From the NCBI GenBank assembly GCA_017991635.1, contig JAGOQE010000002.1, positions 1 to 35,017 on the forward strand: DNA of 35,017 bases, given 5' to 3'. Positions within the stretch are counted from its first letter, which is position 1. Each line of letters begins with the position of its first letter. The position numbers and the translations under genes are program-made. This document shows positions 1 to 28,972 of the stretch, one piece after another. The notes under the pieces are model-generated. The model had not been told where the DNA came from. It was given only the letters and a program-made list of their open reading frames with translations, and searched no databases. Origin of the DNA: Minisyncoccota bacterium (lineage in GTDB: Bacteria; Patescibacteriota; Minisyncoccia; Phycocordibacterales; Phycocordibacteraceae).

Positions 1-233
1 ACACATCTATTTCCGAGCGCGCCCTTATTGAGGCTGAACTTTCCTACGGGGAATCGCCTACTGAAGAGGACATACAAGATCTCATCCGCTCCTTTGAGCG
101 TGCGGTCTTAGAGCAAGAGCTACGAGAAGCAACTATCACACTCCGCAGAGCTGAGGTCGCCAAGGACGACGCCCTCATCACGGATGCCACCACTAAGGTG
201 CAAGAGCTCTCCCGAAAGCTTGCTTCAACTTAG
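1..233 (+). CDS. dnaG: DNA primase, C-terminal end (partial)
   Basis: The reading frame is open from base 3 to the TAG at 231-233 and gives about 76 residues; the gene begins left of the window. The segment is strongly helical and charged (pattern [11 protein letters not shown], then [18 protein letters not shown]), as expected of the C-terminal helical domain of bacterial primase that contacts replicative helicase. It sits 23 bases upstream of rpoD in the same direction, which matches the classical dnaG-rpoD macromolecular-synthesis order. The call rests on the helical tail and this neighbourhood, because the catalytic zinc and TOPRIM domains are outside the window. Another helical protein remains possible. 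Confidence 0.7.
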
Positions 234-256
234 ACGTTTCAATAATCTCAAGAACT

Positions 257-1600
257 ATGCCGAAGAAGACACCTGCCAAGAAAAAGGCGGTTAAAGCGCC
301 TGTTAAGAAAGTTGTGAAAGCGACCGTGAAGAAAAGTGCACCAAAAAAGACCGTGAAAAAAACTACCCCTAAAAAACCTGTAAAGAAGACCGCACCTAAG
401 AAGGTGGTAAAGAAAGCCGTCAAGAAAGCTGCCCCTAAGAAGGTGGTGAAGAAGGCTCCTGCAAAAGCAGGGAAGTCAGGACGCGCGATGGCCGTTGTTC
501 GTGTTGCCGTAAAGGGAGCAAAAGCAAAGGCTGAAGCCGATCGCCAGGACAAAGCAGAACTTCTCATCCAGAAGGGTAAGGAGCGTGGCTACATTACCTA
601 CAGCGAAATTCTCAAAGAATTTCCTCACGTTGAGGAGGACGTCTCATTTCTTGATGAGCTCTACGAGCGCTTCTCAGTAAGTGGTATCGACATTCTCGAA
701 GGAGGCATGCTTGAAGACAATGCTGACCAGTACCTCGCTACCCGAAACATCAAGGGACGCGAGTCTTCAGGCTACGACTCAATTCAGATTTACCTCCGTG
801 AAATTGGACAGTACCCACTTTTGACAGCCGCTGAAGAGCGTGAGCTCGCCAAGCGTATTGATGCAGGGGACGATGAGGCACGAAATATCCTCGCCCGTTC
901 AAACCTTCGTCTTGTGGTGTCTATCGCTAAGAAGTACGTAGGACGCTCTCCAGACCTTACGCTTCTCGACCTTATTCAGGAGGGAAACCTCGGACTCTTT
1001 AAGGCCGTTGATAAGTTCGATTGGAAGAAGGGGTACAAGTTCTCAACCTACGCTACCTGGTGGATTCGTCAGGCTATCACCCGCGCTCTTGCCGACCAGT
1101 CTCGTACCATCCGTATTCCTGTACACATGGTTGAGACCATTGCCAAATACAAGCAGGTCTCCCGCCGTCTCTCACAGGCACTTGGTCGTGATCCTCAGCC
1201 AGAGGAAATTGCTATTGAGATGGGTGTTGAAGTAGACAAGATTTACCAGATTGAAAAAATCAATCAGGACACCCTCTCACTTGAAAACCCAATCGGTTCT
1301 GATGATGATGAGAAGTCTACTCTTGGTGACTTCATCGCCGACGATAAGATTCCGTCTCCAATTCAGGAATCTTCAGAGCGTATTCTTTCAGAGCAGGTCA
1401 AAGATATTCTTGATGATCTTTCTCAGAAGGAGCGCAAGATTTTGGAAATGCGCCATGGTCTCTTGGATGGTGTGTATCACACACTGGAGGAGGTGGGGAA
1501 GGAGTTTGGAGTAACCCGTGAGCGTATTCGCCAAATCGAGGCGAAGGCTTTGGAAAAAATTCGTACTCATGAGAAGGCTCGCCGTCTCAAGAGTTACTAA
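257..1600 (+). CDS. rpoD: Primary sigma factor RpoD (SigA) with lysine-rich N-terminal tail
   Basis: This is the housekeeping sigma subunit of RNA polymerase, 447 aa. Residues 1 to about 95 are a low-complexity tail of PKKxVKK-type repeats resembling histone H1. A region 1.1-like helical segment follows (about 100-150). Region 1.2/2 is textbook: [37 protein letters not shown], and the -10-binding [13 protein letters not shown]. Region 3 follows ([10 protein letters not shown]). Region 4 ends the protein with an HTH around [14 protein letters not shown] and the tail KARRLKSY. The ATG at 257 has no clear Shine-Dalgarno and lies 23 bases after dnaG, so the two are probably cotranscribed. Core identity is certain; the N-terminal tail is the unusual part. 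Confidence 0.97.
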
Positions 1601-1675
1601 TTTTTTCGAAGATTCGTCGCCCTCCGGGCACTCCGATTCTCTAGCTCGTTCCACTCGCAACAGAATCTAGTCGCT

Positions 1676-1708
1676 CACTCAAAAGCGCGCAGACTGAAAA
1701 GCTACTAA
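1676..1708 (+). repeat. Recoded echo of the RpoD C-terminus
   Basis: Downstream of the rpoD stop this stretch reads [10 protein letters not shown]-stop in one frame. The real C-terminus is [10 protein letters not shown]-stop. Over the shared KARRLKSY-stop the bases match at only 20 of 27 positions, and nearly all differences are synonymous (for example CGT against AGA for Arg, AGT against AGC for Ser). The similarity stops abruptly upstream of the His codon. The rpoD terminator follows one base after this second stop codon. It is most simply a leftover 3' end of an older rpoD allele, separated from the present gene by about 75 bases of hairpin-rich sequence. Confidence 0.75.
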
Positions 1709-1735
1709 CAAAAGACCCCCTACAGGGGTCTTTTG
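1709..1735 (+). terminator. Rho-independent terminator after rpoD
   Basis: An 11-bp perfect stem (CAAAAGACCCC / GGGGTCTTTTG) encloses a 5-nt loop and ends in a short T stretch. It abuts the recoded RpoD tail, which suggests this is the original rpoD terminator. Confidence 0.9.
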
Positions 1736-1742
1736 TTATAAT
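1734..1742 (+). promoter_or_regulatory. Extended -10 promoter for the HNH gene
   Basis: TGTTATAAT fits the extended -10 consensus TGnTATAAT and overlaps the last bases of the rpoD terminator. No good -35 is visible. A six-codon micro-ORF (MSKEPS) starts at 1752, where a transcript would begin, and stops before the HNH start at 1787. Confidence 0.55.
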
Positions 1743-1786
1743 TTAAGCGTTATGAGTAAAGAACCAAGTTAATTACTTCTTCGCAA

Positions 1787-2683
1787 ATGAAGCTATCGAG
1801 GATATATGAGGAAGAGCTGGCCAAAGAGGAAACTAATTTCTTTGTCCTTGACTCTGGTCAACATACTAAGGATGTAGATTTTGAAACCTATGAATGGAAA
1901 AAGTCTATAAATAATAAAATAAAAACCGGTGACCTATTCATTTATCGTAAGCCACAAAAAATGATGGGCAGGAAGGAATTCATGCTCTTTGGCGCCGGAA
2001 AGATTGGCGAGATCACAGGTAATGACAGTGTTGCAGCGGTGATTGAGAAACCACACCCATTTGTGAATCCAATTTTTCAGTCACAGCTAGATACGTATAG
2101 TTGGAACTGGAAACAACGTGGAAGTAATTGGGAGCATTTCTGGAACCAGTATGGAATAAACTCTATACCAAAGCAGGACTTCACGAACCTTTTGCAAATG
2201 GTAGATGGAGAGTACGACCCTGCTGATGATGTTCAGGCGATAGTTGAAGATCTACAAATAGCCGAAGGAGACTATTCTGTAGATGATTCTCAGGCGATCG
2301 TGTCATCACGGCCATGGCAGAGTGCGTGGTCACGAAGAGTTAAGGAAAATTACGGGTATATGTGTGCAGTATGCGACCTTAAAGTCCCTGCTTTTCTTGT
2401 TGGATCACACATAGTTCCTGTCAGGGATAGGGAGTTCAAGAATACACGAAAGGATCCAGCGAACGGTATTTGTTTGTGTGCCTTACATGACAAGGCATTT
2501 GACGTTGGTTATTTGGGAATTACGGAGTCGGGATTGATCAGAATATCGGAACAGGCACAGCATGATCCTGTTTTATGGAAGAATTTGAGTTCTTTCTCAG
2601 GAAAAAGAATGCGTAATCCTGTACGCTTCAAGCCAAAAGAAGAATACCTTGCGTATCATAGAGATAGAATATTTCTCAGCTGA
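1787..2683 (+). CDS. HNH endonuclease with N-terminal PUA/EVE-like domain (putative restriction nuclease)
   Basis: 298 aa. The C-terminal part (about 190-245) is an HNH nuclease: CAVC at 193-196, then SHIVPVRD, then ANGICLCALHDKAFD, which supplies the His, Asn and His of the ββα-metal fold plus a likely zinc site. The N-terminal 130 residues (GDLFIYRKP, then LFGAGKIGEI, later FWNQYG) are patterned like an EVE/PUA-type domain that reads modified bases; that assignment is by pattern only. Such fusions occur in modification-dependent restriction enzymes. It is the first gene of the island after rpoD and is AT-rich like the helicase and methyltransferase. It could cut foreign modified DNA independently or be an accessory of the helicase-methylase pair. 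Confidence 0.8.
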   Translation: MKLSRIYEEELAKEETNFFVLDSGQHTKDVDFETYEWKKSINNKIKTGDLFIYRKPQKMMGRKEFMLFGAGKIGEITGNDSVAAVIEKPHPFVNPIFQSQLDTYSWNWKQRGSNWEHFWNQYGINSIPKQDFTNLLQMVDGEYDPADDVQAIVEDLQIAEGDYSVDDSQAIVSSRPWQSAWSRRVKENYGYMCAVCDLKVPAFLVGSHIVPVRDREFKNTRKDPANGICLCALHDKAFDVGYLGITESGLIRISEQAQHDPVLWKNLSSFSGKRMRNPVRFKPKEEYLAYHRDRIFLS

Positions 2684-2860
2684 TCAGTTGGAAGTTTAGC
2701 TTCCTAAGAAAACGTAACAGCTGAACTGCTCATTCGGAAGAGTGTATTATCAAAATCGAGCCTATATTCGAATCCTAGATTCCTAGCAGTCATGGTTGGC
2801 GGTCATCAGACCACGACATGTAAGGAAGAATGGGGATTTTCGGACAAAGAAGTTCGTGCC

Positions 2861-3052
2861 TTAAGCGTTCTCGTATTCTTCTTCTGTTATTTCCTTACCT
2901 CGCGTGAGAATATCTACAGCTAGGTTTGTGTGTGGACTGAGAGTATACGGTTCACCACCTTTAAACTTAACAGTGTACCCGTCTGGTCTAGGCTCTGCTT
3001 TCATGTAAGCATCCTCAAAGTCGTAGTAGAAGTATTTAGTGCTAGTAGTCAT
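2861..3052 (-). CDS. Small hypothetical acidic protein (63 aa)
   Basis: The family is not recognised. The protein is soluble, acidic and rich in aromatic residues at the N-terminus (TKYFYYDFEDAYMKAEP), then VKFKGGEPYTL and an acidic end TEEEYENA. It looks like a folded mini-protein rather than a random ORF. A -10-like TATAGT lies 7 bases before the ATG, giving a leaderless arrangement. It is the only minus-strand gene between the HNH nuclease and the helicase. An antitoxin, inhibitor or regulator role would be speculation from position. Confidence 0.6.
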   Translation of the reverse strand: MTTSTKYFYYDFEDAYMKAEPRPDGYTVKFKGGEPYTLSPHTNLAVDILTRGKEITEEEYENA

Positions 3053-3059
3053 ACAACTT

Positions 3060-3065
3060 ACTATA
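3060..3065 (-). promoter_or_regulatory. -10 element of the 63-aa gene
   Basis: On the minus strand TATAGT (overlapping an alternative TATTAT) lies 7 bases upstream of the ATG at 3052. The -35 region is weak (TTCAAA-like). The promoter points away from the helicase promoter at 3300-3308. Confidence 0.4.
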
Positions 3066-3140
3066 ATACATTTTGCTATTATTGTTTGAATAGAGTAGTT
3101 CGTGGCGAAACCAGCACATGAAGCGACAAACCTAAATTAA

Positions 3141-3290
3141 ATGATAAGACCCGCCTGTGGCGTACCCCCCCCTCCTGAGCACTTCGATTTTTGGCGCTCT
3201 CTGACCGCCTCATCCGCCGTACATATGTACGTCTCCTTCGGCGAACTTCCCACGCCTAGCATCTGGGGCCTTTTTGCTTCGCTTGATTTG
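3141..3290. other. GC-rich non-coding segment with C8 tract and 14-nt palindrome
   Basis: This stretch differs sharply from the AT-rich sequence on both sides. It holds a run of eight C (3165-3172), a perfect 14-nt palindrome centred on CATATG (3218-3231), and 5-bp CGCCG/CGGCG arms around it. The frame upstream of the helicase is open here, but the encoded peptide (proline run, Trp/Ser-rich) does not look like a protein. It ends just before an extended -10 promoter. It could be a mobile or repeated intergenic element or an operator region. Confidence 0.45.
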
Positions 3291-3299
3291 GCGTATGAT

Positions 3300-3308
3300 T
3301 GGTATACT
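3300..3308 (+). promoter_or_regulatory. Extended -10 promoter of the helicase-methyltransferase operon
   Basis: TGGTATACT matches TGnTATAAT-type extended -10 elements. A TTGATT at 3283-3288 is only 14 bases upstream, so it is a poor -35. The in-frame GTG at 3321 lies 12 bases after the -10, implying a very short leader. Confidence 0.55.
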
Positions 3309-3320
3309 AAGTCTATAAAC

Positions 3321-6300
3321 GTGAGTCTACCTCGAATCATAGATAATAAAAGAAAAACCCTCCTCGATTCTGTAATTGAGGTTAGTAAGTCGCACACCGA
3401 ACTGTCACTCGCGACCGGCTACTGGGATCTTGAGGCAATGAGGTTGGTTATGCCGCACCTCGGCAAGTTTGAGAAAATTCGTCTTTTAATCGGACGTGAG
3501 CCGCTTATTCCTCGCCACCAACTCCAACAGCCAGAGCTCGACTTCCCAGATCAAGACTTTAAATTTGATCTCTCTATGCTCGCACCAGGTTCTGACTTGC
3601 GAGATGTTGTAACCGAGATCAAAAAATGGATTGCGGACGGTAAATTCGAGGTGCGAGTGTACCGCAAGAGTTTCCTGCATGCGAAGTGTTATATCTTTGG
3701 CTCGTACGAATCAAGTGAGGCTGTGGGTATTATAGGTTCTTCAAATTTCACTAAAAACGGTCTCACACACAACTCAGAGCTTAATGCGCTCGAGTCTGAT
3801 CATCGTGTTGTCGTCTTCCAACCCAAAAATGAATCGCAAGAAGTTGGGCACCTCTTTTGGTTTGACGAACTTTGGAATGACGAGACGACCGAAAAATGGA
3901 ATGAAGAGTTTGGAGCGATCCTTGAAACTTCACCTGTCGGCGACAAGCTCTATAGCCCATACGAAACCTACATCAAGACCCTGTATGAGCTCTACAAGGA
4001 AGAAATAGAAGATAATATCGAGGAGTTATCAGAAAACGGTCACGGAAAAACTCTGTTTGATTTCCAGCAAAAGAACGTTCGCGCTCTTTTACGCCGATTA
4101 AGAAAGTACAAGGTTGCAATGCTGGCTGACTCTGTAGGTCTAGGAAAAACGACTACGGCTATCAGTGTGCTTAAGCAATATATTGATAATTCTGAGGGTA
4201 AAAAGCGAGTTGAGATAATCTGTCCCAAATCCCTTGTGCAACAATGGGAAAAAGAACTTACAACTGAGGGCGTATACGGATTAAAACCAATTACTCTCCA
4301 GAACTCAAGAGAAATTGAAAATAGAAAGGAACTCGATAGTATTGCGAGTGTCTCGTTGTTTGTTATCGATGAATCTCACAATCTTAGACAGACTTCTGGA
4401 TCTCGATTTAAGCTCTTGCTTGATTGGGTAAGAGCAAATCCAAAGGCACAAGTGTTGCTTCTCACTGCCACTCCAATCAATAACCATCTCAGCGATCTAA
4501 CAAATCAAATTCTCCTTGGAACTGGCGGAGATGCTGAGGTATTGAAAGTCACCATCGCTGATGAGCAAAAGCAAACGGTACAGATCAGTTTCCATCAAGC
4601 AGTTGAGAACCTTAAGAAAAAGATCAACCAAGATATTAAGCGTGATGGGAAGATAGATTACGACTATATCAAGCAGGTAATGACTCCTATTATCCGTACC
4701 TTTGTAGTGCGCCGAACGAGACAGGGTATCGAAAATGAGTATGGTTCTTTAACTATCAATGGTGTAGAGAAGAAATTCCCAAGGGTTATTCCTGAGGTTA
4801 CTGAATATGAACTTGATAAGAAACTCGTTGAGTCAATCAGAAAGATTGAGAGCCCAGCCATTTCACTATCCTCAGTGTATGAACTAGATCCGAACGAGAT
4901 AATTGAAAAATGTAAGGATCTTAAACACCCTCTAAACCAGCTTGATAGGGTTACGAAGAAACAAGACGAGAAGACCTTAGCTGAAGAGAATCCGATGTAC
5001 TTCGTATTCCAGCTTATCTTGATGCTCGGGTTCATTCCTTACCGCTGGATGATGTATCAAACGAAATATTACGGTAAGACTCGAGATGAAATTAAGGAGA
5101 TCGGACTTAGCTCAGAGAACAGTAAAAAACTACTTCTGCAGTTGGGTATATTCGGTATTCTACGAACGGTCTTCCTTAAGCGTATGGAATCTTCAGTCAG
5201 TGCTTTGCGCTCATCTCTTGAAGCGTATAGTCGAAAATTGGAGCTCTTTGAAAAAGGTATTGAGGAGGGGAAAATCGTATCTCTTAAAGATATTCAAGCA
5301 CTCGAGCTTAGTTTTGGTGATGAAGATCTTGAGGTAGACGAAGAGGCTCTTGAGGAAAATACCCTGGAAACTATTGATGAAAAGAGCTATGAGCTCGAAA
5401 TAATGAAGCAGGATCTGATAAAAGAGAAGGAGCTCGTCTCGGTTATCCGTGCTCAGTTAGAGATACTGGCTAAAGACGACTCAAAGATCAAATGCTTCGG
5501 AACCCTGCTTGATAAGCTTGAGAAAGAGAATCCAGATAAAAAGGTTCTCGTCTTCTCTTACTATGCAGACACTATCAATTATATTCAGGACTCAATCTCA
5601 AAATACTCCTCAAGCATTAATGCAGAAAATACTGGTTTTGTTTCTTCGAAAAATAGGAGTGACGCTGAAAACCTGGCGTCTCGATTCTCACCAATCTCAA
5701 AGAGTTATGTATTGAAGGAGGGAGAATCATCACTACAATATCTGTTTTCTACAGATGTGCTCTCGGAAGGCCAAAACCTTCAAGATGCTGGTATTCTCGT
5801 GAACTACGATCTTCACTGGAACCCTGTTCGTATGATCCAGAGAAACGGTCGTGTTAACCGTCTTGGATCACTCTTTGACGAAGTTTATATCTACAATATG
5901 CGTCCTGAAGCAAAGCTCGATTCTTACCTCAAACTCATCCAACGCCTAGAAGGAAAAATTAATCTCATTAAAAACACTATTGGTACAGATACTCCAGTAC
6001 TTGCTGAACCAGAAAACCCAATCGAATATACAGATTCGGTGAGTGATATTTACAGTGCTGATATGCAAAAGAGAATGCAGGCACTTGAGGATGCTGAGAA
6101 AGCATCAGACTTCCTCCTTTCGGAAGATGAGTTTGTCCTTGACTTAAAACGCTTTAATGAAAGTGATCTATACCCAGCAGAATATAAGGAGAAAATCTAC
6201 AATATCTCTGATGGGAAGTGGGCACTTACGCCAAGTACACTTTCTCGTGGGCAATCAAGACCTGAAGTTTTTGGTCTAACAAAGCTGTTTTCCGATGAAG

Positions 6301-6803
6301 GTGATCTAACTGGTTTTCAGTTTACAAAGACAGACAAAACTGCTTCTCGGCTGTTCGCGGTATCTCAACTTCAAGCATTGGAGTGGCTACGAACAACCCC
6401 TCAAGATAATGAGAGATCACTAGACAAGATAACTATTGATAAGGTTGCTGTTAAAAATCAACTTGAATCAAAGGTTATTCAATACTACAACGATGAGGAA
6501 ACTGGATCACTGATTGGTCAAGAAAATGAAGTACTTCGCATTCTCTTTGCTAATGACTATGAAGAAGAGGATATTGATACAGTCCGAGACGCATTTAAGA
6601 CAAGAGATGTCTTTTACAAGAGAGAGATTTCTCAGTTGAAGCGCAAAGTGATGGCTGAGAAAAACAGAGGTGATGCATATCAAGAAACGCTCAAAAAGCT
6701 GGTGTCTTTGGCAAAAGACCTAAATAAATACAAGCAAACTGCTGTTGCAGAGCTTCCGACAACCTCAACAAGCATTCTGTTCTTCGTAAACAATAATGAG
6801 TAA
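3321..6803 (+). CDS. PLD-nuclease / SNF2-type helicase fusion, defence system
   Basis: 1160 aa from the GTG at 3321. This start is chosen because it follows an extended -10; the frame is open back to an ATG at 3141, but that extension is not protein-like. Residues 15-160 form a phospholipase-D-type nuclease domain with LHAKCYIF (HxK at 120-122) and GSSNFTKNGL. An SF2 helicase core follows: Walker A ADSVGLGKTTTA (near 273), DESH (350), LLLTATPINN, and a second RecA domain with STDVLSEGQNLQ and QRNGRVNRLG (near 840). Coiled-coil-like charged segments separate the lobes. It overlaps the methyltransferase by 8 bases, so they are translated together. DISARM-type and related systems also use SNF2 helicases, PLD nucleases and adenine methylases; here the PLD and helicase are one chain. 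Confidence 0.88.
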   Translation: MSLPRIIDNKRKTLLDSVIEVSKSHTELSLATGYWDLEAMRLVMPHLGKFEKIRLLIGREPLIPRHQLQQPELDFPDQDFKFDLSMLAPGSDLRDVVTEIKKWIADGKFEVRVYRKSFLHAKCYIFGSYESSEAVGIIGSSNFTKNGLTHNSELNALESDHRVVVFQPKNESQEVGHLFWFDELWNDETTEKWNEEFGAILETSPVGDKLYSPYETYIKTLYELYKEEIEDNIEELSENGHGKTLFDFQQKNVRALLRRLRKYKVAMLADSVGLGKTTTAISVLKQYIDNSEGKKRVEIICPKSLVQQWEKELTTEGVYGLKPITLQNSREIENRKELDSIASVSLFVIDESHNLRQTSGSRFKLLLDWVRANPKAQVLLLTATPINNHLSDLTNQILLGTGGDAEVLKVTIADEQKQTVQISFHQAVENLKKKINQDIKRDGKIDYDYIKQVMTPIIRTFVVRRTRQGIENEYGSLTINGVEKKFPRVIPEVTEYELDKKLVESIRKIESPAISLSSVYELDPNEIIEKCKDLKHPLNQLDRVTKKQDEKTLAEENPMYFVFQLILMLGFIPYRWMMYQTKYYGKTRDEIKEIGLSSENSKKLLLQLGIFGILRTVFLKRMESSVSALRSSLEAYSRKLELFEKGIEEGKIVSLKDIQALELSFGDEDLEVDEEALEENTLETIDEKSYELEIMKQDLIKEKELVSVIRAQLEILAKDDSKIKCFGTLLDKLEKENPDKKVLVFSYYADTINYIQDSISKYSSSINAENTGFVSSKNRSDAENLASRFSPISKSYVLKEGESSLQYLFSTDVLSEGQNLQDAGILVNYDLHWNPVRMIQRNGRVNRLGSLFDEVYIYNMRPEAKLDSYLKLIQRLEGKINLIKNTIGTDTPVLAEPENPIEYTDSVSDIYSADMQKRMQALEDAEKASDFLLSEDEFVLDLKRFNESDLYPAEYKEKIYNISDGKWALTPSTLSRGQSRPEVFGLTKLFSDEGDLTGFQFTKTDKTASRLFAVSQLQALEWLRTTPQDNERSLDKITIDKVAVKNQLESKVIQYYNDEETGSLIGQENEVLRILFANDYEEEDIDTVRDAFKTRDVFYKREISQLKRKVMAEKNRGDAYQETLKKLVSLAKDLNKYKQTAVAELPTTSTSILFFVNNNE

Positions 6804-9800
6804 ATTACCCACTAAAATCCAAGGCATTCAAGATGAGCTGAGCAAGCTCTCTGAACATAAAACCTTTGAACAAACACAGAGGGTTATTTTGTCAGTCATA
6901 AGGCTTGTTGATGACACGGTTTCAGTAGACGATTTGGACTTGTTCCAGTTGTTTAATGATAGCGATGGAAAAATACGAGCCAATGCATCGTGGTTCTATG
7001 AAGATCAAGTAATAGCTGATCGCAAAGCAACCTATAAGGTACACGCAGATAACAAAATTAATCTTGATTTCAAAGTATATGGAGTAAACAGAGCAAAGAA
7101 GCAGGTAATCTCTTGGGCTACCGCTCTAACTCCAAACTTTGAGGATGAGCCGTTCAACACCAAGTTCAATATTGGTATTGATTTTGTTGTACCAAAATCA
7201 ACCGATCGAGTCATCATTGTACTTACTAACAATTATGTAATTCGTACGCTTGAGTTAAAGGATGACATTACCGCTACGTATCAAGAGATTCTTGCAAAGT
7301 GGGCAGAGATTAAGGACTTTTCCAAAAAGCCAGCAGTCCATACTGCTTTATGGGAAAGTTTCGATCTACAGCCTCTTAATAAGAAATTCTACGCTGGCAT
7401 TAGTGAACTCTTTATCATTCTTCGTCAGTATTTAATCAAAGAGAATATTCTTGATGAAAAACAAGCTTCAATGTTTGCGAACCGTCTCATTGGTCGTGTC
7501 ATCTTCACTTGGTTCTTGGACAAGAAAGGCATTATCAACAGAGATCTTAAGTATTTTGACTCTCAATCTTTTGAATCCGATACTGAGTACTACAAAACAA
7601 AGCTCGAACGACTCTTTTTTGGTGTACTGAATACACCAACAGATGAACGTGAGTACAAAGATGAGGTAACACCTTTCTTAAACGGAGGCTTATTTGAAGT
7701 GCGAAACAATGATCTCTACAAGGATAACAAGTTGAGTTTCCCTAAGAATTATTTCGATGACTTATTTGAGTTTCTTTCGGGATATAACTTCACTACTGAC
7801 GAGAGCACTAGTCAATTCCAGCAAGTAGCAATTGATCCTGAAATGTTGGGTCGTATATTTGAAAACCTGCTTGCAGAAATTACTGAAGAGACAGGAGAAC
7901 AAGCCCGCAAGGCTAAAGGTGCATTTTATACACCTCGAGAAGTCGTGGACTATATGTGCAAGGAGTCTTTAAAGGAATATCTCAAGACAAAACTTCCTGA
8001 GGATACTTATAGAGATCAACGTCTTTACCAGCTCATAGAGGCTCCTGATAAAGATTTCCAAGATCAAGACCATAACTGGCGTAGAGATTGGAAGCCCTAT
8101 AAGGACGCTATCCTGTCAGCTCTTGATGATCTGAAAGTCCTTGACCCAGCCTGCGGGTCAGGAGCTTTTCCAATAGGGATGTTACAGCTCCTAGTACGGG
8201 TCTACGAGCGTCTCGAGCCCCGTTTTGATGGGTATAAGGCAAAGCTACAGATCATAGAGAGAAATATCTATGGTGTTGATATTGAGCCAATGGCAGTTGA
8301 AATTGCACGCCTTAGAACGTGGCTCTCAATCATTGTGGACGAGGAGTCAGATTCAAAGAAGATAAAACCTCTACCTAACCTCGAGTTTAAGTTTGTATGC
8401 GCTAATTCGTTAATTGACCTTGATCAGGACGGAGCTACCACATTTGGAGACGATCCTGATCTTGAAAATAAACTTCGAATCATACGAGATGCCTATTTCA
8501 ATACCGAAAGCTTAGCTAAGAAAAAGAAGCTAAGGAGTGATTACAACTTGTTGGTAAACACGAGCCTTAATCTCTTTGGAGAATCAGAAAGATCTTTACA
8601 GCTCAAGACATACAGACCCTTTGACAACGAGTCGTCAGCAAGCTTCTTTAACCCTGATTTTATGTTTGGAGTAAATCACTTCAACATAGTCATTGGTAAT
8701 CCACCTTATTTGAGAATACAGGGTCTTCAAAAGACTAATGCATTATTAGTTGAGCAGTACAAGAAAAGTTATATATCTGCAACAGGATCTTTCGACCTGT
8801 ATGTGCTTTTTGCAGAAAGGGGTCTTAAACTCTTGAATACAGATGGGTTTCTGAATTTCATAATGCCAGACAAATGGCTAAACTCTTCATTTGGTCTTGG
8901 GCTCAGAAAGGTAGCAAAACAATCAGGCTCATTGCATAAAGTAATTTCTTTTAAGGAAAGTCAAATTTTCAACGCTTCGACATATTCTTCTCTTGTTTGG
9001 TTTACTAAAGCAAAGCATTCTGGAATTCAATTCTTCGAGTTTCCAAGCGGAATCTCGGGGGCAACTATTCTCGGACAACTTTCAAGTCTCTCAGACGAAA
9101 AAATGAAGTTTCATCTCATTGATTCCTCGGTTCTTGATCAGGATAAGTGGACATTTACTCCAACCACAAATCAAGCAATACTAAAGAAAATCAGTGGCAA
9201 TTCACCAAAATTGAAAGATGTTTTTTCAGGAGTCTTTCAAGGTATCGCAACGGGAATGGATGACGTTTTCTTCGTAACACAAATATCAGATGGCGAAAAT
9301 GGTTTAATCAAGGTTTATTCAAAAGCAGGTAATAAAGAGTACTTGCTAGAGGAAGATATGCTCATGCCTGTGCTAAAAGGAAATCAGGTACATCGATACG
9401 AAAAACTTGAGACGAGTGTCAGAGTTGTATTTCCTTATACCAGAGCGAAAAAAGATAATGCTTCTTTTGGGGTTAAGCTAATTCCTCACAATGATCTTGA
9501 AAGTAAGTACCCATCAACTTTTGCTTATTTTAAAGAGTTTGAAAAAGAATTAAGAGCAAGAGAGAAGTCTTCTTTTGACGATGATCAGTGGTTTCGCTTT
9601 AGTAGGAATCAAGGTATTTCATTTCCAGCTGTCAAGAAACTGGTAGCACCTTATTTATCATTGGGCAGTCAGTTCACTTTTGATCGTAGTGGGCATTTTT
9701 TAACCAATACAAAATGCTATTCGTACTTACCGAAAGATGAAGAAAAACACAGTCTTTTGCTCCTGTTGGGTATCCTTAACTCAAAACTGACTTGGTTCTT

Positions 9801-10047
9801 CATTAGTAGTACAAGTTCAGTAATGAGAGGAGGTTACTGTGTCTACTCACCTGAATACTTAAAAAGCTTTTCATTTCCTGAAAAAAATGATTTGTCGATA
9901 GGAATTGAAGAACTAACTGAGAAAAGGCTCTCTGTTCAAGACAGGGATCAAGCCAAAGAAATAGAAAAGAAGATTGATGAACTTGTTCTTGATCTTTACG
10001 GTCTTACTGACGAAGAAAAAGAGGTAGTAAGAAGTAGTCTAAAATAA
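6796..10047 (+). CDS. Eco57I-type N6-adenine DNA methyltransferase with target-recognition domain
   Basis: 1083 aa. The methyltransferase core has motif I DPACGSGAFPIG (near residue 450) for S-adenosylmethionine and motif IV NPPYLRIQG (near 635), the N6-adenine signature. Residues 1-430 are a long helical region with no obvious PD-(D/E)XK site, and residues 800-1083 look like a TaqI/Eco57I-type DNA-recognition domain. The ATG overlaps the helicase stop by 8 bases. The likely role is to mark host DNA so that the helicase-nuclease partner spares it, or to act within a restriction complex. Composition is AT-rich (one 60-nt row counted at 37% GC). The stop TAA is followed directly by TAG and then an in-frame remnant of another gene. 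A type IIG enzyme carrying its own nuclease cannot be excluded by eye. Confidence 0.88.
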   Translation: MSKLPTKIQGIQDELSKLSEHKTFEQTQRVILSVIRLVDDTVSVDDLDLFQLFNDSDGKIRANASWFYEDQVIADRKATYKVHADNKINLDFKVYGVNRAKKQVISWATALTPNFEDEPFNTKFNIGIDFVVPKSTDRVIIVLTNNYVIRTLELKDDITATYQEILAKWAEIKDFSKKPAVHTALWESFDLQPLNKKFYAGISELFIILRQYLIKENILDEKQASMFANRLIGRVIFTWFLDKKGIINRDLKYFDSQSFESDTEYYKTKLERLFFGVLNTPTDEREYKDEVTPFLNGGLFEVRNNDLYKDNKLSFPKNYFDDLFEFLSGYNFTTDESTSQFQQVAIDPEMLGRIFENLLAEITEETGEQARKAKGAFYTPREVVDYMCKESLKEYLKTKLPEDTYRDQRLYQLIEAPDKDFQDQDHNWRRDWKPYKDAILSALDDLKVLDPACGSGAFPIGMLQLLVRVYERLEPRFDGYKAKLQIIERNIYGVDIEPMAVEIARLRTWLSIIVDEESDSKKIKPLPNLEFKFVCANSLIDLDQDGATTFGDDPDLENKLRIIRDAYFNTESLAKKKKLRSDYNLLVNTSLNLFGESERSLQLKTYRPFDNESSASFFNPDFMFGVNHFNIVIGNPPYLRIQGLQKTNALLVEQYKKSYISATGSFDLYVLFAERGLKLLNTDGFLNFIMPDKWLNSSFGLGLRKVAKQSGSLHKVISFKESQIFNASTYSSLVWFTKAKHSGIQFFEFPSGISGATILGQLSSLSDEKMKFHLIDSSVLDQDKWTFTPTTNQAILKKISGNSPKLKDVFSGVFQGIATGMDDVFFVTQISDGENGLIKVYSKAGNKEYLLEEDMLMPVLKGNQVHRYEKLETSVRVVFPYTRAKKDNASFGVKLIPHNDLESKYPSTFAYFKEFEKELRAREKSSFDDDQWFRFSRNQGISFPAVKKLVAPYLSLGSQFTFDRSGHFLTNTKCYSYLPKDEEKHSLLLLLGILNSKLTWFFISSTSSVMRGGYCVYSPEYLKSFSFPEKNDLSIGIEELTEKRLSVQDRDQAKEIEKKIDELVLDLYGLTDEEKEVVRSSLK

Positions 10048-10287: not shown

Positions 10288-10359
10288 GCCCTCGTAAGCT
10301 AATGGATAAACTGTCGGGATTCTACCCCGAATTTGGGAGTTCGAATCTCTCCGAGGGCA
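10288..10359 (+). tRNA. tRNA-Arg (anticodon UCU)
   Basis: The acceptor stem GCCCTCG/CGAGGGC pairs perfectly. The anticodon stem TCGGG/CCCGA encloses the loop ATTCTAC, giving anticodon TCT, which reads AGA. The T-arm is GGGAG-TTCGAAT-CTCTC. The D-arm has one mismatch (AGCT against AACT) but carries the GG of the D-loop. The variable loop is short (4 nt), the discriminator is A, and CCA is not encoded. Loop position 32 is A, which is unusual. The convergent CDS on the minus strand ends at the very next base. Confidence 0.9.
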
Positions 10360-10785
10360 CTATAGACCTTGTGTGAAAGTTTTGGCGGAGGCTTGGAGCC
10401 AGTAGGTGATAGAGTCTTCCATTCCGTTTTCGATACGCTTCTCGAGTTTGTTGAATGGGTTCAACTCTACGCGGTCGTTGTTGGGGAGGGTGAAGGCAAG
10501 GACCCAGCGGTCTTGGCGCTCAGAGAATACCCAGTCGGCGCTAAAAATCATGCGTAGTGCTTCGCCAAGCGGGCTTCCGAAAATAAGAATAGTCTCTGGT
10601 GTGTACAGAAGGTTCTGTTTCTTCATCGTGTCGGTGATGGCGTCCACGAGAGTGTCCATAATGTAGACAAGACCCACAGCCTCTTCGGGATTGGTGAAAG
10701 GGGGAATAGTATAGACCTCAAAAAATTGAGCAGTGTACTCAGAAAACAGGTCGGGGCTAATGCTTGGGTCGCGTGTCGTGTCCAT
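10360..10785 (-). CDS. Hypothetical protein, possibly DUF3806-like
   Basis: 141 aa, soluble. The second half (ILIFGSPLGEALRM, ADWVFSERQDRWVLAF, VELNPFNKLEKRIENG, then SITYWLQ) resembles the LG-xx-LGE, Trp, Pro-Phe, KRxxxG pattern that I associate with DUF3806. This is a low-confidence family call and no catalytic residues are apparent. The start overlaps the upstream nuclease gene by 29 bases, so the two are cotranscribed and may act together. Its stop is adjacent to the tRNA-Arg end, so its transcript must terminate inside or beyond the tRNA on the opposite strand. Confidence 0.6.
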   Translation of the reverse strand: MDTTRDPSISPDLFSEYTAQFFEVYTIPPFTNPEEAVGLVYIMDTLVDAITDTMKKQNLLYTPETILIFGSPLGEALRMIFSADWVFSERQDRWVLAFTLPNNDRVELNPFNKLEKRIENGMEDSITYWLQASAKTFTQGL

Positions 10786-11524
10786 AGATTTGCACTAGTT
10801 TCTCAGAGTTCTCCAGAATATAGGATTTTTTAATAAAACTCCACTTTAATTTCTCAATACTGATGAGATAGACCTCCTTAGGTTTTTCTGCTGCGCCACC
10901 AATGCCAAGGGCGAGACGCACCTTCACACCGTGCTCCTTTCCAAATTCGCCATAGCGGACAGTCCACTCAGGCTTCCACATAAATCCTGTCTCTGGATAG
11001 CCCTCCTTTTTAGTCCAAGTGCTTCTGTATTTACACTCAACAGCAAACTTATCTCCAGACTTTAAGTCTCTGAAAAGGAGGTCAGGGTTTTTGTCTGACT
11101 CAACATAACGCCCTAGGTACTTTCCGTTGTCACGAGTACGGTCGATTATGACAAACTTATCCTCAGGGAAAAGTGAAGCAACAAACTTCTCGAAACGAGC
11201 ACCTTTTTGATATGAGTTCGTTGCCCAAAACAAATAAAAGGAAAGCCCCGCCATCAAGAGTACGTCGACAATTATCCATAAGTCTCTCCTCAAACTGAAT
11301 GGAAGAAGCGGATTAAAGAGAACTGCGCAGGCTACGAAGAATATGGCGAATTGCTTGTAGTGTTGCAGAAAGGCAATAAAAGCTAGCGCAACAAAAAGGA
11401 CGAAGGCAGCCATTTTGAGATCTGCGTAGTGAGGGTAGATTCCAAGTGCTGCTATGAGCAATATAGCGGAGCAGGCAAGTGCTAGAAGTTTGCCGAGCTT
11501 CAGTCGTGAATTTATGAGATGCAT
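10757..11524 (-). CDS. Membrane-anchored PD-(D/E)XK nuclease-like protein (DUF6804-like N-terminus)
   Basis: 255 aa. Four hydrophobic segments occupy about residues 10-105. They include LFNPLLPFSLRRDLW followed by IIVDVLLMAG, a pattern like the DUF6804 membrane family. A cytoplasmic domain follows: GARFEKFVASLF, then KNPDLLF with the Asp, and FAVECKYR with the E-x-K, which together make a restriction-endonuclease-type (NERD/Mrr-like) active site. The C-terminal part is soluble and mixed. It could be a membrane-tethered DNA-processing or defence enzyme. It is divergent from the DUF1905 gene across 58 bases, and the following DUF3806-like gene overlaps its end. Confidence 0.75.
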   Translation of the reverse strand: MHLINSRLKLGKLLALACSAILLIAALGIYPHYADLKMAAFVLFVALAFIAFLQHYKQFAIFFVACAVLFNPLLPFSLRRDLWIIVDVLLMAGLSFYLFWATNSYQKGARFEKFVASLFPEDKFVIIDRTRDNGKYLGRYVESDKNPDLLFRDLKSGDKFAVECKYRSTWTKKEGYPETGFMWKPEWTVRYGEFGKEHGVKVRLALGIGGAAEKPKEVYLISIEKLKWSFIKKSYILENSEKLVQIYGHDTRPKH

Positions 11525-12248: not shown

Positions 12249-12277
12249 AGTATACACTAAAACTACATTTTAGTCAA
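12249..12277 (-). promoter_or_regulatory. Consensus promoter of the 94-aa orphan
   Basis: On the minus strand TTGACT (12272-12277) and TATACT (12249-12254) have the ideal 17-bp spacer. The -35 lies inside the 3' end of the EVE-domain gene. A Shine-Dalgarno GAGG is at 12221-12224. Confidence 0.75.
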
Positions 12278-12718
12278 TATTTCGTATTCGGGTTTGAGGA
12301 CGCGGGTGATGGAGAGGCGGTTGCCTTGGGAGAGTATTTTGAGCGCAGAGAGTTTCTTGTCGGCGCGCATAGCTTCAAGGGTGATGGGCTCCTTGAGTGT
12401 ACTTACATAGGCAACATCAACGAGGTACCAAAGGGGATTCTCTGGAGTGCATCGTTTATCAAAATATTCTGATTCAGTATCAAATTGTGCTGGGTCGGGG
12501 TACGGTTCTGAAGCTACCTTTGCCATGCCGTAAATACCCGGGACCTTGCAGTTTGAATGATAGAAAAAAATAGGATCACCCCTCTGCATGTCGTACATCA
12601 TGAAGTTCCGAGCCTGAAAATTTCTGACGCCTGTCCAGGGCGTCTTTTTGTCTTTCTTCAAGTGCTCTATGCCGTAGGTCTCGGGCTCAGATTTGATGAG
12701 CCAGTATTTGGGTTCCAT
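12263..12718 (-). CDS. EVE domain-containing protein
   Basis: 151 aa, a full-length single-domain EVE protein. The hallmark opening is KYWLIKSEPETYGIEHL, followed by PWTGVRNFQARNFMMYDMQRGDPIFFYHS, GIYGMAKV and PWYLVD-like PLWYLVDVAYV. EVE proteins have a PUA-like fold and are thought to bind modified bases in DNA or RNA. The ATG is 10 nt from a -10 TATACT. The gene is divergent from the DUF45 protease with only 31 bases between them. Confidence 0.93.
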   Translation of the reverse strand: MEPKYWLIKSEPETYGIEHLKKDKKTPWTGVRNFQARNFMMYDMQRGDPIFFYHSNCKVPGIYGMAKVASEPYPDPAQFDTESEYFDKRCTPENPLWYLVDVAYVSTLKEPITLEAMRADKKLSALKILSQGNRLSITRVLKPEYEILTKM

Positions 12719-14941: not shown

Positions 14942-15538
14942 ATGAACCGCATGGTTCTGGCCATCATGGCCGCCGCTCTTTCCATTTTCGCTGCTTCGAC
15001 CGCTTCGGCTCAACAGCGGGTCGTCGTCAACACGGCGGCGCAGTGCCAGACCATCCGGGGTACGCTCCAGGTGGAAAACGGTACGACGCTCGTCTGTGTG
15101 GTCGGCGCTTCGGCTCCCGCCCGCTCCGATCCCACGGCTCGCTTCGCTCCGGCGCCGGCCCCTCGCGTTGAGGGTGCGGTTCCGCCGAATCTGGCTCGCC
15201 TCGTCTTCGTCCCGACTTCCCGGGGGAACCAAGTGTTCTTCTCGGGCGAGCGGGTCTACCTTGAGGGTGGGCCGCAAGCCTATCTCCGGGCCATCGAGGC
15301 CTCGCGGAACCTGTGCCTCACGGACCGTTATCGTCCGCGGCAACAGATCGCTGGCCGAGACTACCCGGCAGTGGGTTACCGCGACCGTCGTCGTGGTTCG
15401 GACGGATTCGACATCCGCGCCGACGACCTGCTTCGGATGGGCTCTGCTCGCTCGCGAGCGGCCCAGGAGGAAGCTCGGGCCATGGTCCGCGACTTCTGCC
15501 GCGACTTCGAACCCTGGGACCGTCGCCAGAACCGCTAA
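14942..15538 (+). CDS. GC-rich orphan, secreted or periplasmic protein
   Basis: 198 aa from the ATG at 14942, chosen because GGAG lies just upstream and the N-terminus is a clean signal peptide: MNRMVLAIMAAALSIFAAS then a likely cut after ASA before QQ. The mature protein has a Pro/Ala-rich linker (ARFAPAPAPRVEGAVPP) and an Arg/Asp-rich C-terminal half with three Cys in all, ending RDFCRDFEPWDRRQNR. The family is not recognised. One coding row counts as about 77% GC, far above the neighbours. It has a consensus promoter, structured leader and terminator, so it is an autonomous cassette. A long antisense frame over it is a composition artefact. Confidence 0.75.
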   Translation: MNRMVLAIMAAALSIFAASTASAQQRVVVNTAAQCQTIRGTLQVENGTTLVCVVGASAPARSDPTARFAPAPAPRVEGAVPPNLARLVFVPTSRGNQVFFSGERVYLEGGPQAYLRAIEASRNLCLTDRYRPRQQIAGRDYPAVGYRDRRRGSDGFDIRADDLLRMGSARSRAAQEEARAMVRDFCRDFEPWDRRQNR

Positions 15539-15562
15539 GCGAAAACCGCACATCATGTGCAA

Positions 15563-15595
15563 AGCCCCCGATTTCCTTTTAGGAAACCGGGGGCT
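15563..15595. terminator. Bidirectional terminator
   Basis: AGCCCCCG/CGGGGGCT plus TTTCC/GGAAA with one A-C mismatch and a 5-nt loop lie between two convergent genes and can serve both. Confidence 0.8.
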
Positions 15596-15602
15596 CAGTC
15601 AT

Positions 15603-16031
15603 TTAGTGGCCACCATGACCACTTCCGCCATGGCTTCGCTTGTGGAAGATGAGCGAGACCAGTGTGCCAAGGACGGCGGCGATAATTGAAGGCATAAGAA
15701 TGGCCGTAGCTTGAAGCCAGTTCTCCGCATTGCTCCACACATGATCCCTGAAGGGAATGTTCATGAGGAAGTAGGCAAAGGTCGAGACTGCAAGCGTAAG
15801 GCCCATGCCACGATTCACCCAGGAGAGCATGCCTGAGACGGCAGCCACTATCGGGAAGACGAGCTTGAAGGCTTCCTTGTGGGGAATGCCCTCAACGGCC
15901 CATGCCGTCGTCAAAAACAGACTTCCCATATAGCGCGCAACTAGGAATGTGAGCACGCCAAAGCAAAGGGCAAGGGGAACACGTTTGGTTTTCTCCCACA
16001 GGACGTGGAAGGGCGTGTGCTTCGATGACAT
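15603..16031 (-). CDS. Small membrane protein with His-rich C-terminus
   Basis: 142 aa from the ATG at 16031, preceded by GGAGGA; a longer frame upstream lacks a ribosome-binding site. Four hydrophobic segments are visible: ALCFGVLTFLVARYMGSLFL, LVFPIVAAVSGMLSWV, LTLAVSTFAYFLMNIPF and ILMPSIIAAVLGTLVSLIF. The end is HKRSHGGSGHGGH, which could bind metal or only be a tag-like cytosolic tail. The family is not recognised. A TTGAAA (16083-16088) with a weak TACGCT gives a possible promoter. It is convergent with the secreted orphan and shares its terminator. Confidence 0.65.
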   Translation of the reverse strand: MSSKHTPFHVLWEKTKRVPLALCFGVLTFLVARYMGSLFLTTAWAVEGIPHKEAFKLVFPIVAAVSGMLSWVNRGMGLTLAVSTFAYFLMNIPFRDHVWSNAENWLQATAILMPSIIAAVLGTLVSLIFHKRSHGGSGHGGH

Positions 16032-27996: not shown

Positions 27997-28062
27997 GCGG
28001 AACTTGTATTTCCGCGTTGCTTGAAAATCTGAACAGCACGGCCCTAAGGAGGGGCTTTCATC
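27997..28062 (+). promoter_or_regulatory. Structured leader with partly hidden Shine-Dalgarno
   Basis: GCGGAA/TTCCGC forms a hairpin at 27997-28015. AAGGAGG (28046-28052) lies in a GCCC/GGGC hairpin whose loop holds most of the ribosome-binding site, 10 bases before the ATG. The hairpin could control initiation; no known riboswitch class is recognised. Confidence 0.45.
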
Positions 28063-28875
28063 ATGTCGAACGACGTCACCTATCCCGGCGCGTCCCCGTT
28101 CCCGATCAACAAGGGCGATGACCCCAAGCTGATGAAGAGGCTCATCCTCGCTCTCGTCATCATTGCCGGCATCGCGGCCCTGATCGTGGCGGTCCTCACG
28201 GCCATCACGCCCAAGGCGCTCCCGCTCTCGACCTCGGTCCAGGCCGAGTCGGGCGAGTACCTGGCCTCGATCGGCCGGGACTCCGGCGGAGTTTCCATCC
28301 GCGCGATGGGTCTCGCCAACCTCTTCCCGAGGTCGGCGGCCTACGAGAGCAACTGTGGCGACGGACGGCAGGGCGTGATGCTCTGCAATCCCCGCTATGA
28401 GCTCTCGCAGCTGAACACCCTTCGCCCCGGCGAAGCGGTCTTCATCCCGAGCCAGATCGACCTGACCCAGCGCTTCGCCCAAATGGGCAGTGCGCCGGTC
28501 GCCATCGTCGTCGACACGCGCTCGCCCCAAGCTGCCGCCATCGCGGCCGTCTACGTTCGCGAGAGCGAACGCTTGGGACGCTCGGACACCGTCTGGCTCA
28601 CCGACGGCAGGATGGTTCGGCAGTATCTGCCGAACCGCATCGACGACCAGATGTCGGTGTCCGGCATTCCTGGCGCCGTCAACGTGGCCGTCGGCTCTTC
28701 TGGCGCCGAGACGGCCTTCCTGATCACGACCCGTGACCTCACGGGTATCGAACAGGGTGGCTACCTCGGCGTGCGGCGGCTGTTCGGGCACTGTGCGACG
28801 CCCGAGTGCAAGCGCCTCAACAGTGAGGTGCGCGCCAACCACGGCCGGATGTTCCCGGTCGAGTTCAGGCCCTAG
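28063..28875 (+). CDS. GC-rich orphan, single-pass membrane protein
   Basis: 270 aa. A 30-residue cytosolic N-terminus is followed by one membrane helix (LILALVIIAGIAALIVAVLTAI) and a soluble C-terminal part outside. That part contains four Cys and the segments VAIVVDTRSPQAAAIAAVYV, DTVWLTDGRMVRQYLP and GYLGVRRLFGHCATPECKRL. The family is not recognised. One row of coding sequence counts as 70% GC, against 52% in cydB immediately upstream. It has its own consensus promoter, a strong Shine-Dalgarno and a palindromic terminator. Confidence 0.78.
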   Translation: MSNDVTYPGASPFPINKGDDPKLMKRLILALVIIAGIAALIVAVLTAITPKALPLSTSVQAESGEYLASIGRDSGGVSIRAMGLANLFPRSAAYESNCGDGRQGVMLCNPRYELSQLNTLRPGEAVFIPSQIDLTQRFAQMGSAPVAIVVDTRSPQAAAIAAVYVRESERLGRSDTVWLTDGRMVRQYLPNRIDDQMSVSGIPGAVNVAVGSSGAETAFLITTRDLTGIEQGGYLGVRRLFGHCATPECKRLNSEVRANHGRMFPVEFRP

Positions 28876-28916
28876 GGCACAGACAAAATCCACTTCACGA
28901 GTTTTGTGAAGCTGGT

Positions 28917-28956
28917 ATGGGCGCAACGTTCTTCGGCCGAAGAACGTTGCGCCCAT
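28917..28956 (+). terminator. 40-nt perfect palindrome, probable terminator
   Basis: Twenty-base arms are perfectly complementary with no spacer; each arm runs from ATGGGCGC to CTTCGG. ATTTTT overlaps and follows the right arm on the plus strand, so it can terminate the orphan gene. A smaller CTTCAC/GTGAAG hairpin lies just before it. Confidence 0.75.
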
Positions 28957-28972
28957 TTTTCATATCTACCAA

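What the first reader, a model, noticed from the sequence alone, without database searches (positions are those of the whole stretch)
1736..10047. Compact island: PLD-helicase fusion plus Eco57I-type methylase with a linked HNH nuclease
The helicase chain carries both a PLD nuclease domain (HxK at 120-122) and a complete SNF2-type helicase core. It overlaps an N6-adenine methyltransferase by 8 bases. An HNH nuclease with a PUA/EVE-like N-terminus precedes them, and no separate specificity gene or DISARM drmA/drmB partner is present. This suggests a reduced two- or three-protein restriction system. The island is AT-rich (one methylase row counted at 37% GC) against about 50% in ordinary genes here.
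Basis: partly seen in the sequence, partly recalled or inferred. Interest (0 to 1): 0.7.

Follow-up and report, generated by a model that had tools for sequence, protein, structure and literature searches.

The report
Two-gene motor-driven restriction-modification pair
This bacterium carries a two-gene defence system, one protein that methylates its own DNA at a chosen sequence and a partner that combines a DNA motor with a cutting domain; the same pair occurs across many bacterial phyla and an archaeon, has been glimpsed before on dairy plasmids but not named, and the neighbouring HNH nuclease gene is not part of it.

Summary
HEL (3321-6803, GTG start) joins an N-terminal single-HKD PLD nuclease domain to an SNF2-type helicase. 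MT (6796-10047) is a gamma-class N6-adenine methylase with a fused C-terminal target-recognition domain (TRD). They overlap by 8 bp. Among 55 close relatives (many phyla, one archaeon), MT is the next gene in 50 of 51 with at least 1 kb downstream. No HNH relative was found in any of 80 loci; in the window an opposite-strand ORF separates HNH from HEL. HEL and MT-core identities co-vary (r 0.85); the TRD does not (r 0.27), e.g. 83/81/22% against the closest relative. Seven or eight relatives carry an inverted second TRD plus a DNA invertase, i.e. switchable specificity. PLD residues H120, K122, N142, E153 are invariant in 54 of 54 homologues; the MT N-terminus keeps no catalytic triad. Best reading: an ATP-dependent restriction-modification pair working like a split Type ISP enzyme with a PLD cutter. 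The architecture was noted in 2018 on Lactococcus plasmid pLd8 and has an unnamed PADLOC candidate model, so this is a new member of a known but unnamed kind.

The parts
3321..6803 (+). HEL: PLD nuclease domain (about aa 1-200, HxK 120-122, GSSN 139-142, E153) + SNF2-type helicase (about aa 243-900) + weakly conserved C-terminal region; GTG start
   Evidence: Pfam PLDc_2, RE_NgoFVII, SNF2-rel_dom, Helicase_C; PADLOC C3a139 'HKD+Snf2' E=1.4e-44; start from relatives; PLD residues invariant in 54/54 homologues; a single HKD motif in 53 of 54
6796..10047 (+). MT: gamma-class N6-adenine DNA methyltransferase with fused TRD (N-terminal domain aa 1-190, helical spacer + MTase aa 190-690 with DPACGSGAF and NPPY, TRD aa about 690-1040)
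   Evidence: Pfam Eco57I, N6_Mtase, TaqI_C; AlphaFold model pLDDT 85; matches CamA, BrxX/PglX, MmeI, LlaBIII
6796..6803 (+). 8-bp overlap of the HEL stop with the MT start
   Evidence: the closest relative has the same 8-bp overlap, and 35 of the 50 close pairs checked overlap
8863..9915 (+). TRD-coding part of MT: the segment exchanged between relatives
   Evidence: sliding identity falls from 82-93% to 18-30% against L046 while HEL stays at 63-97%; correlation analysis
1787..2683 (+). HNH nuclease gene (neighbour, not part of the core system)
   Evidence: Pfam HNH_2; PDB 6yex HNH endonuclease, E=6.4e-8, HNH part only; absent from all 80 relative loci
2861..3052 (-). 63-aa ORF on the opposite strand between HNH and HEL
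3138..3320 (+). dispersed repeat element of the genus, read through by the spurious N-terminal extension of the HEL ORF
   Evidence: partial copies in 5 other genomes of the genus, up to 4 per genome; 52.8% GC inside the AT-rich island
1706..1738 (.). perfect palindromic terminator-like hairpin between rpoD and the island
257..1600 (+). rpoD (sigma-70), upstream flank; in a 95%-identical sister sequence it is followed by a Type I R-M system instead
10288..10360 (+). tRNA-Arg (TCT), downstream flank

Best explanation
A two-gene, ATP-dependent restriction-modification system. MT binds an (asymmetric) target through its C-terminal TRD and methylates an adenine to mark self DNA [domains shown; activity inferred]. 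HEL associates with MT, probably through MT's family-specific N-terminal domain [inferred; that domain co-diverges with HEL, r=0.91]. At an unmethylated target the SNF2 motor moves along DNA using ATP [inferred]. When two complexes meet, two single-HKD PLD domains pair into one active site and cut both strands, as in BfiI-type PLD nucleases [inferred from the single invariant H/K/N/E set]. Specificity lies wholly in the MT TRD, which is exchanged between relatives and, in some, flipped by a site-specific invertase [exchange shown; switching inferred from inverted copies plus invertase]. The HNH gene next door is a separate defence gene at the same site.
For: MT is the next gene in 50 of 51 close relatives with at least 1 kb downstream; 35 of the 50 pairs checked overlap. 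No third gene recurs: upstream and downstream neighbours differ apart from recombinases and extra TRD fragments. Identity matrices: HEL vs MT core r=0.85, HEL vs MT N-terminus r=0.91, HEL vs TRD r=0.27 (44 pairs); window vs L046 83/81/22%, L053 vs L054 88/87/24%. PLD H120, K122, N142, E153 invariant in 54/54; one HKD motif in 53 of 54. The MT N-terminal domain (aa 1-160) has no invariant residue and no conserved D...ExK, so the PLD is the only conserved nuclease. MT aa 190-1083 superposes on MmeI (Z 25.2), BrxX (26.6) and on the MTase+TRD half of Type ISP LlaBIII (24.9; its residues 714-1577). Inverted TRD copies (33 bp at 100% to 307 bp at 91%) downstream of MT with an Mpi-type invertase in L037, L170, L085, L088, L096, L097 and L114, probably also archaeal L071. 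HEL is the only PLDc_2 protein in the genome. The same architecture was read as a restriction-modification system by others (PMC6098607).
Against: No member of this family is known to me to have been tested biochemically or against phage. The PLD motif lacks the canonical HKD aspartate (G at that position in 93%). HEL's helicase is nearest to RapA/DrmD-type SNF2 proteins, which also serve in DISARM/BREX-like systems where direct cutting is not established. L092 has 1.7 kb downstream without a methylase. The HEL C-terminal region (aa 900-1160) and the MT N-terminal domain have no assigned function.
Confidence: 0.8

Rival explanations
1. One reading: the HNH nuclease is a functional third component, for instance cutting modified DNA that the methylase-based arm cannot.
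For: Same strand, within 640 bp, similar AT-rich composition. NCBIfam and PDB matches point to modification-dependent nucleases, a sensible complement to an R-M system.
Against: No relative in any of 80 HEL loci, none beside the pair in L040 or L041 or L037/L038/L170. A 63-aa opposite-strand ORF lies between. Only 2 of 380 other Patescibacteria have even a distant HNH relative, and those genomes showed no HEL match.
Confidence: 0.07
2. BREX/DISARM-like exclusion: MT marks self, and HEL blocks or unwinds phage DNA without making a double-strand break; the PLD domain acts as a nickase or is regulatory.
For: The helicase family includes DrmD and BrxHII relatives, and the MT fold is also close to BrxX/PglX. 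The PLD motif lacks the HKD aspartate.
Against: Hallmark partners are absent from the genome (DUF499, MZB/DrmB-YprA, PglZ). The BfiI-type H/K/N/E set is invariant across phyla, which speaks for catalysis.
Confidence: 0.12
3. Type IIG enzyme plus an unrelated helicase: MT alone cuts and methylates, and HEL is an accessory helicase.
For: PADLOC calls MT a Type IIG REase-MTase (E=1.9e-154).
Against: The MT N-terminal domain keeps no catalytic triad in the family, and the alignment with MmeI starts only at MmeI residue 161, after its nuclease. MT follows HEL in nearly all close relatives and the two co-diverge.
Confidence: 0.04

Closest known systems
Putative Type II/IIG R-M of Lactococcus plasmid pLd8 (orf33-orf34; PMC6098607, 2018), and pJM1D (CP016750), counted as a complete Type II system in PMC6458302
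   Same: PLD + SNF2 + Helicase_C protein followed by a IIG-type methylase with TaqI_C TRD, then a further ORF and a resolvase; CP016750 (L037) is a tested homologue at 36% (HEL) and 34% (MT) identity over most of each protein
   Different: pLd8 itself was not in the collections, so its homology is inferred from the description. The window copy lacks the inverted TRD and the invertase
Type ISP R-M enzymes (LlaGI, LlaBIII)
   Same: nuclease + SF2 motor + gamma-MTase + TRD; the MT fold matches the MTase-TRD half
   Different: two polypeptides instead of one; PLD instead of Mrr-type nuclease; SNF2/RapA-like motor
Type IIG / IIL enzymes (MmeI) and the orphan methylase CamA
   Same: gamma-MTase and TRD with the same fold (MmeI also the helical spacer)
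   Different: MmeI carries its nuclease in the same chain; here it sits on the helicase partner. CamA has no nuclease partner
BR / Hma systems (COG1743 methylase - DUF499 ATPase - SWI2/SNF2 helicase with PD-(D/E)XK or PLD nuclease; PMC7641849, PMC12839542)
   Same: SNF2 helicase fused to a nuclease (PLD in some), beside an N6 methylase
   Different: no DUF499 ATPase in the locus or genome
DISARM class 1 (DrmD + DrmMI) and ARMADA (PMC12458937)
   Same: SNF2/RapA-like helicase with a PglX/Eco57I-like methylase
   Different: no DrmA/DrmB or YprA; the PLD nuclease is fused to the helicase rather than a separate DrmC
VcaM4I-type EVE-HNH nucleases (PDB 6yex), for the HNH neighbour
   Same: C-terminal HNH domain matches; similar length (298 vs 309 aa)
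   Different: N-terminal domain not shown to be EVE here

Membership tests
PLD-SNF2 helicase / gamma-MTase-TRD pair (pJM1D/pLd8 kind) | PLD and SNF2 core in one protein with invariant H/K/N/E | tested here: met
PLD-SNF2 helicase / gamma-MTase-TRD pair (pJM1D/pLd8 kind) | adjacent gamma-MTase with fused TRD downstream on the same strand | tested here: met
Type ISP | single polypeptide with Mrr-type nuclease, motor, MTase and TRD | tested here: not met
   two ORFs, PLD nuclease
Type IIG | nuclease domain in the methylase chain | tested here: inconclusive
   no conserved D...ExK in aa 1-165; that domain was not folded and searched alone
BR / Hma | DUF499 ATPase | tested here: not met
   no PF04465 in the genome, 96% complete
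DISARM / ARMADA | DrmA-DrmB or YprA with DUF1998/MZB | tested here: not met
   no PF09369 in the genome
BREX | PglZ | tested here: not met
   no PF08665 in the genome
Type III R-M | beta-class Mod and Res with PD-(D/E)XK | tested here: not met
   MT is Eco57I/TaqI-like gamma class; HEL has PLD
Single-protein PLD anti-phage helicase (NF042964) | score at or above the curated cut-off | tested here: not met
   144 bits against a cut-off of 1100
Active R-M system | methylation and restriction of DNA | not testable with these tools
   needs methylome and phage assays
EVE-HNH nuclease (for the HNH gene) | HNH domain | tested here: met
EVE-HNH nuclease (for the HNH gene) | N-terminal EVE/PUA domain | tested here: inconclusive
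   no Pfam match; model unusable in aa 1-179; the same module precedes a NOV_C domain in Lactococcus

The most novel reading that the evidence does not exclude
The pair is a distinct, unnamed class of ATP-dependent restriction-modification enzyme: R = PLD-SNF2 (a cutter of the metal-independent nuclease superfamily on a translocating motor), M~S = gamma-MTase with TRD. It is spread across bacteria and at least one archaeon, and in several lineages its target sequence is switched by inversion of a second TRD cassette.
Probability: 0.5. Interest if true: 0.6.

Novelty: new member of a known kind. Interest (0 to 1): 0.4.

Why it matters
It places a compact two-gene R-M system, so far found mentioned only in passing on dairy plasmids, in a reduced-genome Patescibacterium and shows that it is a widespread family. 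If the mechanism holds, the family would be a two-subunit counterpart of the Type ISP enzymes with a nuclease of another fold, and a source of exchangeable and invertible recognition domains (candidate phase-variable methylomes in Bifidobacterium, Coriobacteria, Lactococcus). The current profile libraries split it into 'Type IIG methylase' plus a generic helicase.

Tried and rejected
HNH as third component: rejected (0 of 80 loci). Relatives in viral contigs: none by protein query for HEL or HNH; no phage match for the HNH N-terminus. Empty-site comparison: the region 3' of rpoD is variable in the genus and none of nine relatives reproduces the window's downstream flank, so island ends could not be set. 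AlphaFold of the HNH protein: unusable N-terminus with only 3 sequences. pLd8 could not be fetched, so its homology rests on the published domain list. The 26%-identical Lactococcus/Leuconostoc helicases (L175, L176) were set aside: they sit with DUF4391 and what look like Type III Mod/Res genes, a different system. No structure match was listed for most of MT aa 1-190; that domain was not folded and searched alone.

Full report
What is there. The window is the start of contig C18 of a 726-kb Patescibacteria genome, 96% complete (the phylum is inferred from relatives found). Between rpoD (257-1600) and tRNA-Arg (10288-10360) lie, all on the + strand, an HNH gene (1787-2683), HEL (GTG 3321-6803) and MT (6796-10047). 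HEL and MT overlap by 8 bp. The HEL ORF could be read from 3141, but relatives start at the residue matching GTG 3321, and 3138-3320 is a dispersed repeat with partial copies elsewhere in the genus. From 3321 the HxK motif is at 120-122, as reported. The island is AT-rich: 38-42% GC against 50%.

Domains. HEL has PLDc_2/RE_NgoFVII and SNF2-rel_dom plus Helicase_C; MT has Eco57I, N6_Mtase and TaqI_C. PADLOC's best model for HEL is the unnamed candidate C3a139 'HKD+Snf2' (E=1.4e-44); for MT it is a Type IIG model (E=1.9e-154). The NCBIfam models for DISARM DrmD, PLD anti-phage helicase and BREX PglX match far below their cut-offs.

The pair is the conserved unit. Close relatives in Patescibacteria (51-53% for HEL) carry HEL followed by MT with 20-bp overlaps, as do Lactococcus and Lactiplantibacillus plasmids, with overlaps of 14-17 bp. 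A scan of 84,980 species genomes gave 573 relatives, of which the best 80 were kept. Of the 55 closest, 51 have at least 1 kb downstream and 50 of those have MT next; 35 of 50 checked pairs overlap. By record titles they come from Patescibacteria, Omnitrophota, Bacteroidota, Bacillota, Actinomycetota, Proteobacteria, Nitrospirota and a Methanofastidiosia archaeon, many of them metagenome bins. In the 25 more distant loci (mostly 27-34% identity) the arrangement varies, so the claim is for the close subfamily.

The HNH gene is not part of it. tblastn with the HNH protein found nothing in any of the 80 loci, although upstream sequence is short in some. In the window a 63-aa ORF on the opposite strand lies between HNH and HEL. 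In 380 Patescibacteria genomes only two others have even a distant relative. The HNH domain resembles PDB 6yex, which from my own knowledge is the modification-dependent nuclease VcaM4I. Its N-terminal module also occurs in front of a NOV_C (DUF3883) domain on Lactococcus plasmids, so it looks like a portable module. Whether it is EVE-like could not be settled.

No conserved third gene. Flanking ORFs (98 upstream, 87 downstream or intervening) show no recurrent family except serine recombinases and extra TaqI_C TRD fragments. Individual loci carry different extras, such as SIR2-, Qat- or MutL-like proteins. DUF499, MZB/DUF1998 and PglZ are absent from the genome, which excludes complete Hma/BR, DISARM, ARMADA and BREX systems within the limits of a 96%-complete assembly.

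Specificity sits in the MT C-terminus and is exchanged. Against the closest relative (L046) MT identity runs 63-93% up to about residue 540, then falls to 18-30% from about residue 660, while HEL stays at 63-97% throughout. Over 44 pairs, HEL identity tracks the MT core (r=0.85) and the MT N-terminal domain (r=0.91) but hardly the TRD (r=0.27). Pairs such as L053/L054 (HEL 88%, core 87%, TRD 24%) and the reverse, L067/L069 (core 61%, TRD 77%), show TRD exchange. Seven loci (L037, L170, L085, L088, L096, L097, L114), and probably the archaeal L071, carry an inverted partial TRD copy downstream of MT next to an Mpi-type invertase (56-100% identical to the Lactococcus one). The window copy has neither.

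Nuclease. H120, K122, N142 and E153 are invariant in 54 of 54 homologues, and there is one HKD motif per chain in 53 of 54. From established knowledge of BfiI and similar enzymes, a single-motif PLD nuclease needs a dimer. The first 160 residues of MT have no invariant residue and no conserved D...ExK, so MT is not obviously a nuclease.

Fold of MT. The model (mean pLDDT 85) matches CamA (Z 32.8 over 543 residues), BrxX, MmeI and residues 714-1577 of Type ISP LlaBIII (Z 24.9). MT thus corresponds to the MTase-TRD half of a Type ISP enzyme, and HEL supplies a motor and nuclease of other families. Type ISP enzymes are described as single chains of Mrr nuclease, translocase, gamma-MTase and TRD that cut after two molecules converge (PMC3874165). 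Shown here: pairing, co-divergence, TRD exchange, conserved active sites. Inferred: complex formation, translocation, collision and cleavage.

Literature. The same layout was described for Lactococcus plasmid pLd8: orf33 with PLD, SNF2 and helicase domains, orf34 a REBASE Type IIG methylase with no restriction domain, then orf35 and a resolvase, with a noted resemblance to DISARM domains (PMC6098607). CP016750, named pJM1D in PMC6458302 and pJM1F in the record title, was counted there as a complete Type II system. DUF499 systems with PLD-helicases are described in PMC7641849 and PMC12839542. I found no paper that names or tests the two-gene family; most subscription journals and REBASE itself were not searchable.

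Setting. In the same bin, contig C17 carries a second rpoD (95% identical at the protein level over 298 aa) followed by RadC, a Fic protein and a Type I R-M system. The 3' side of rpoD therefore looks like a place where defence genes are exchanged; C17 may come from a co-assembled relative. L046 and L040 have large serine recombinases near the pair, a plausible route of transfer.

Verdict. Observation confirmed, interpretation partly supported: a real, conserved two-gene R-M system, HNH excluded, new member of a known but unnamed kind.

Noticed in passing
L160 (G000:C17) 1-9858: A second rpoD sequence in the same bin (95% protein identity over 298 aa) is followed by RadC, Fic and a Type I R-M system, so the rpoD 3' side looks like a defence exchange site, or C17 is from a co-assembled relative.
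   Followed up: partly
3138-3320: Dispersed GC-rich repeat of the genus (partial copies 73-94% identical, up to 4 per genome), which creates a spurious N-terminal extension of the helicase ORF.
   Followed up: partly
L037, L170, L085, L088, L096, L097, L114, L071: Inverted TRD fragments with Mpi-type invertases downstream of the methylase: invertible specificity in this family, apparently including an archaeal MAG.
   Followed up: partly
10757-11524: DUF6804 membrane protein with a C-terminal part that by eye resembles a PD-(D/E)XK nuclease ('NPDLLFRD...FAVECKYR').
   Followed up: no
12263-12718: Stand-alone EVE-domain protein about 2 kb beyond the island; only one of nine genus relatives compared has an EVE gene near rpoD.
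   Followed up: no
15001-16000 and 28001-29000: Two stretches of 62-63% GC in an otherwise 48-50% GC window.
   Followed up: no
L041 3458-4546: A 362-aa protein without Pfam match follows MT with a 4-bp overlap in one relative; by eye a possible accessory nuclease.
   Followed up: partly
L175, L176: A more distant helicase of this superfamily sits with DUF4391 and genes that look like Type III Mod/Res in Lactococcus and Leuconostoc.
   Followed up: no
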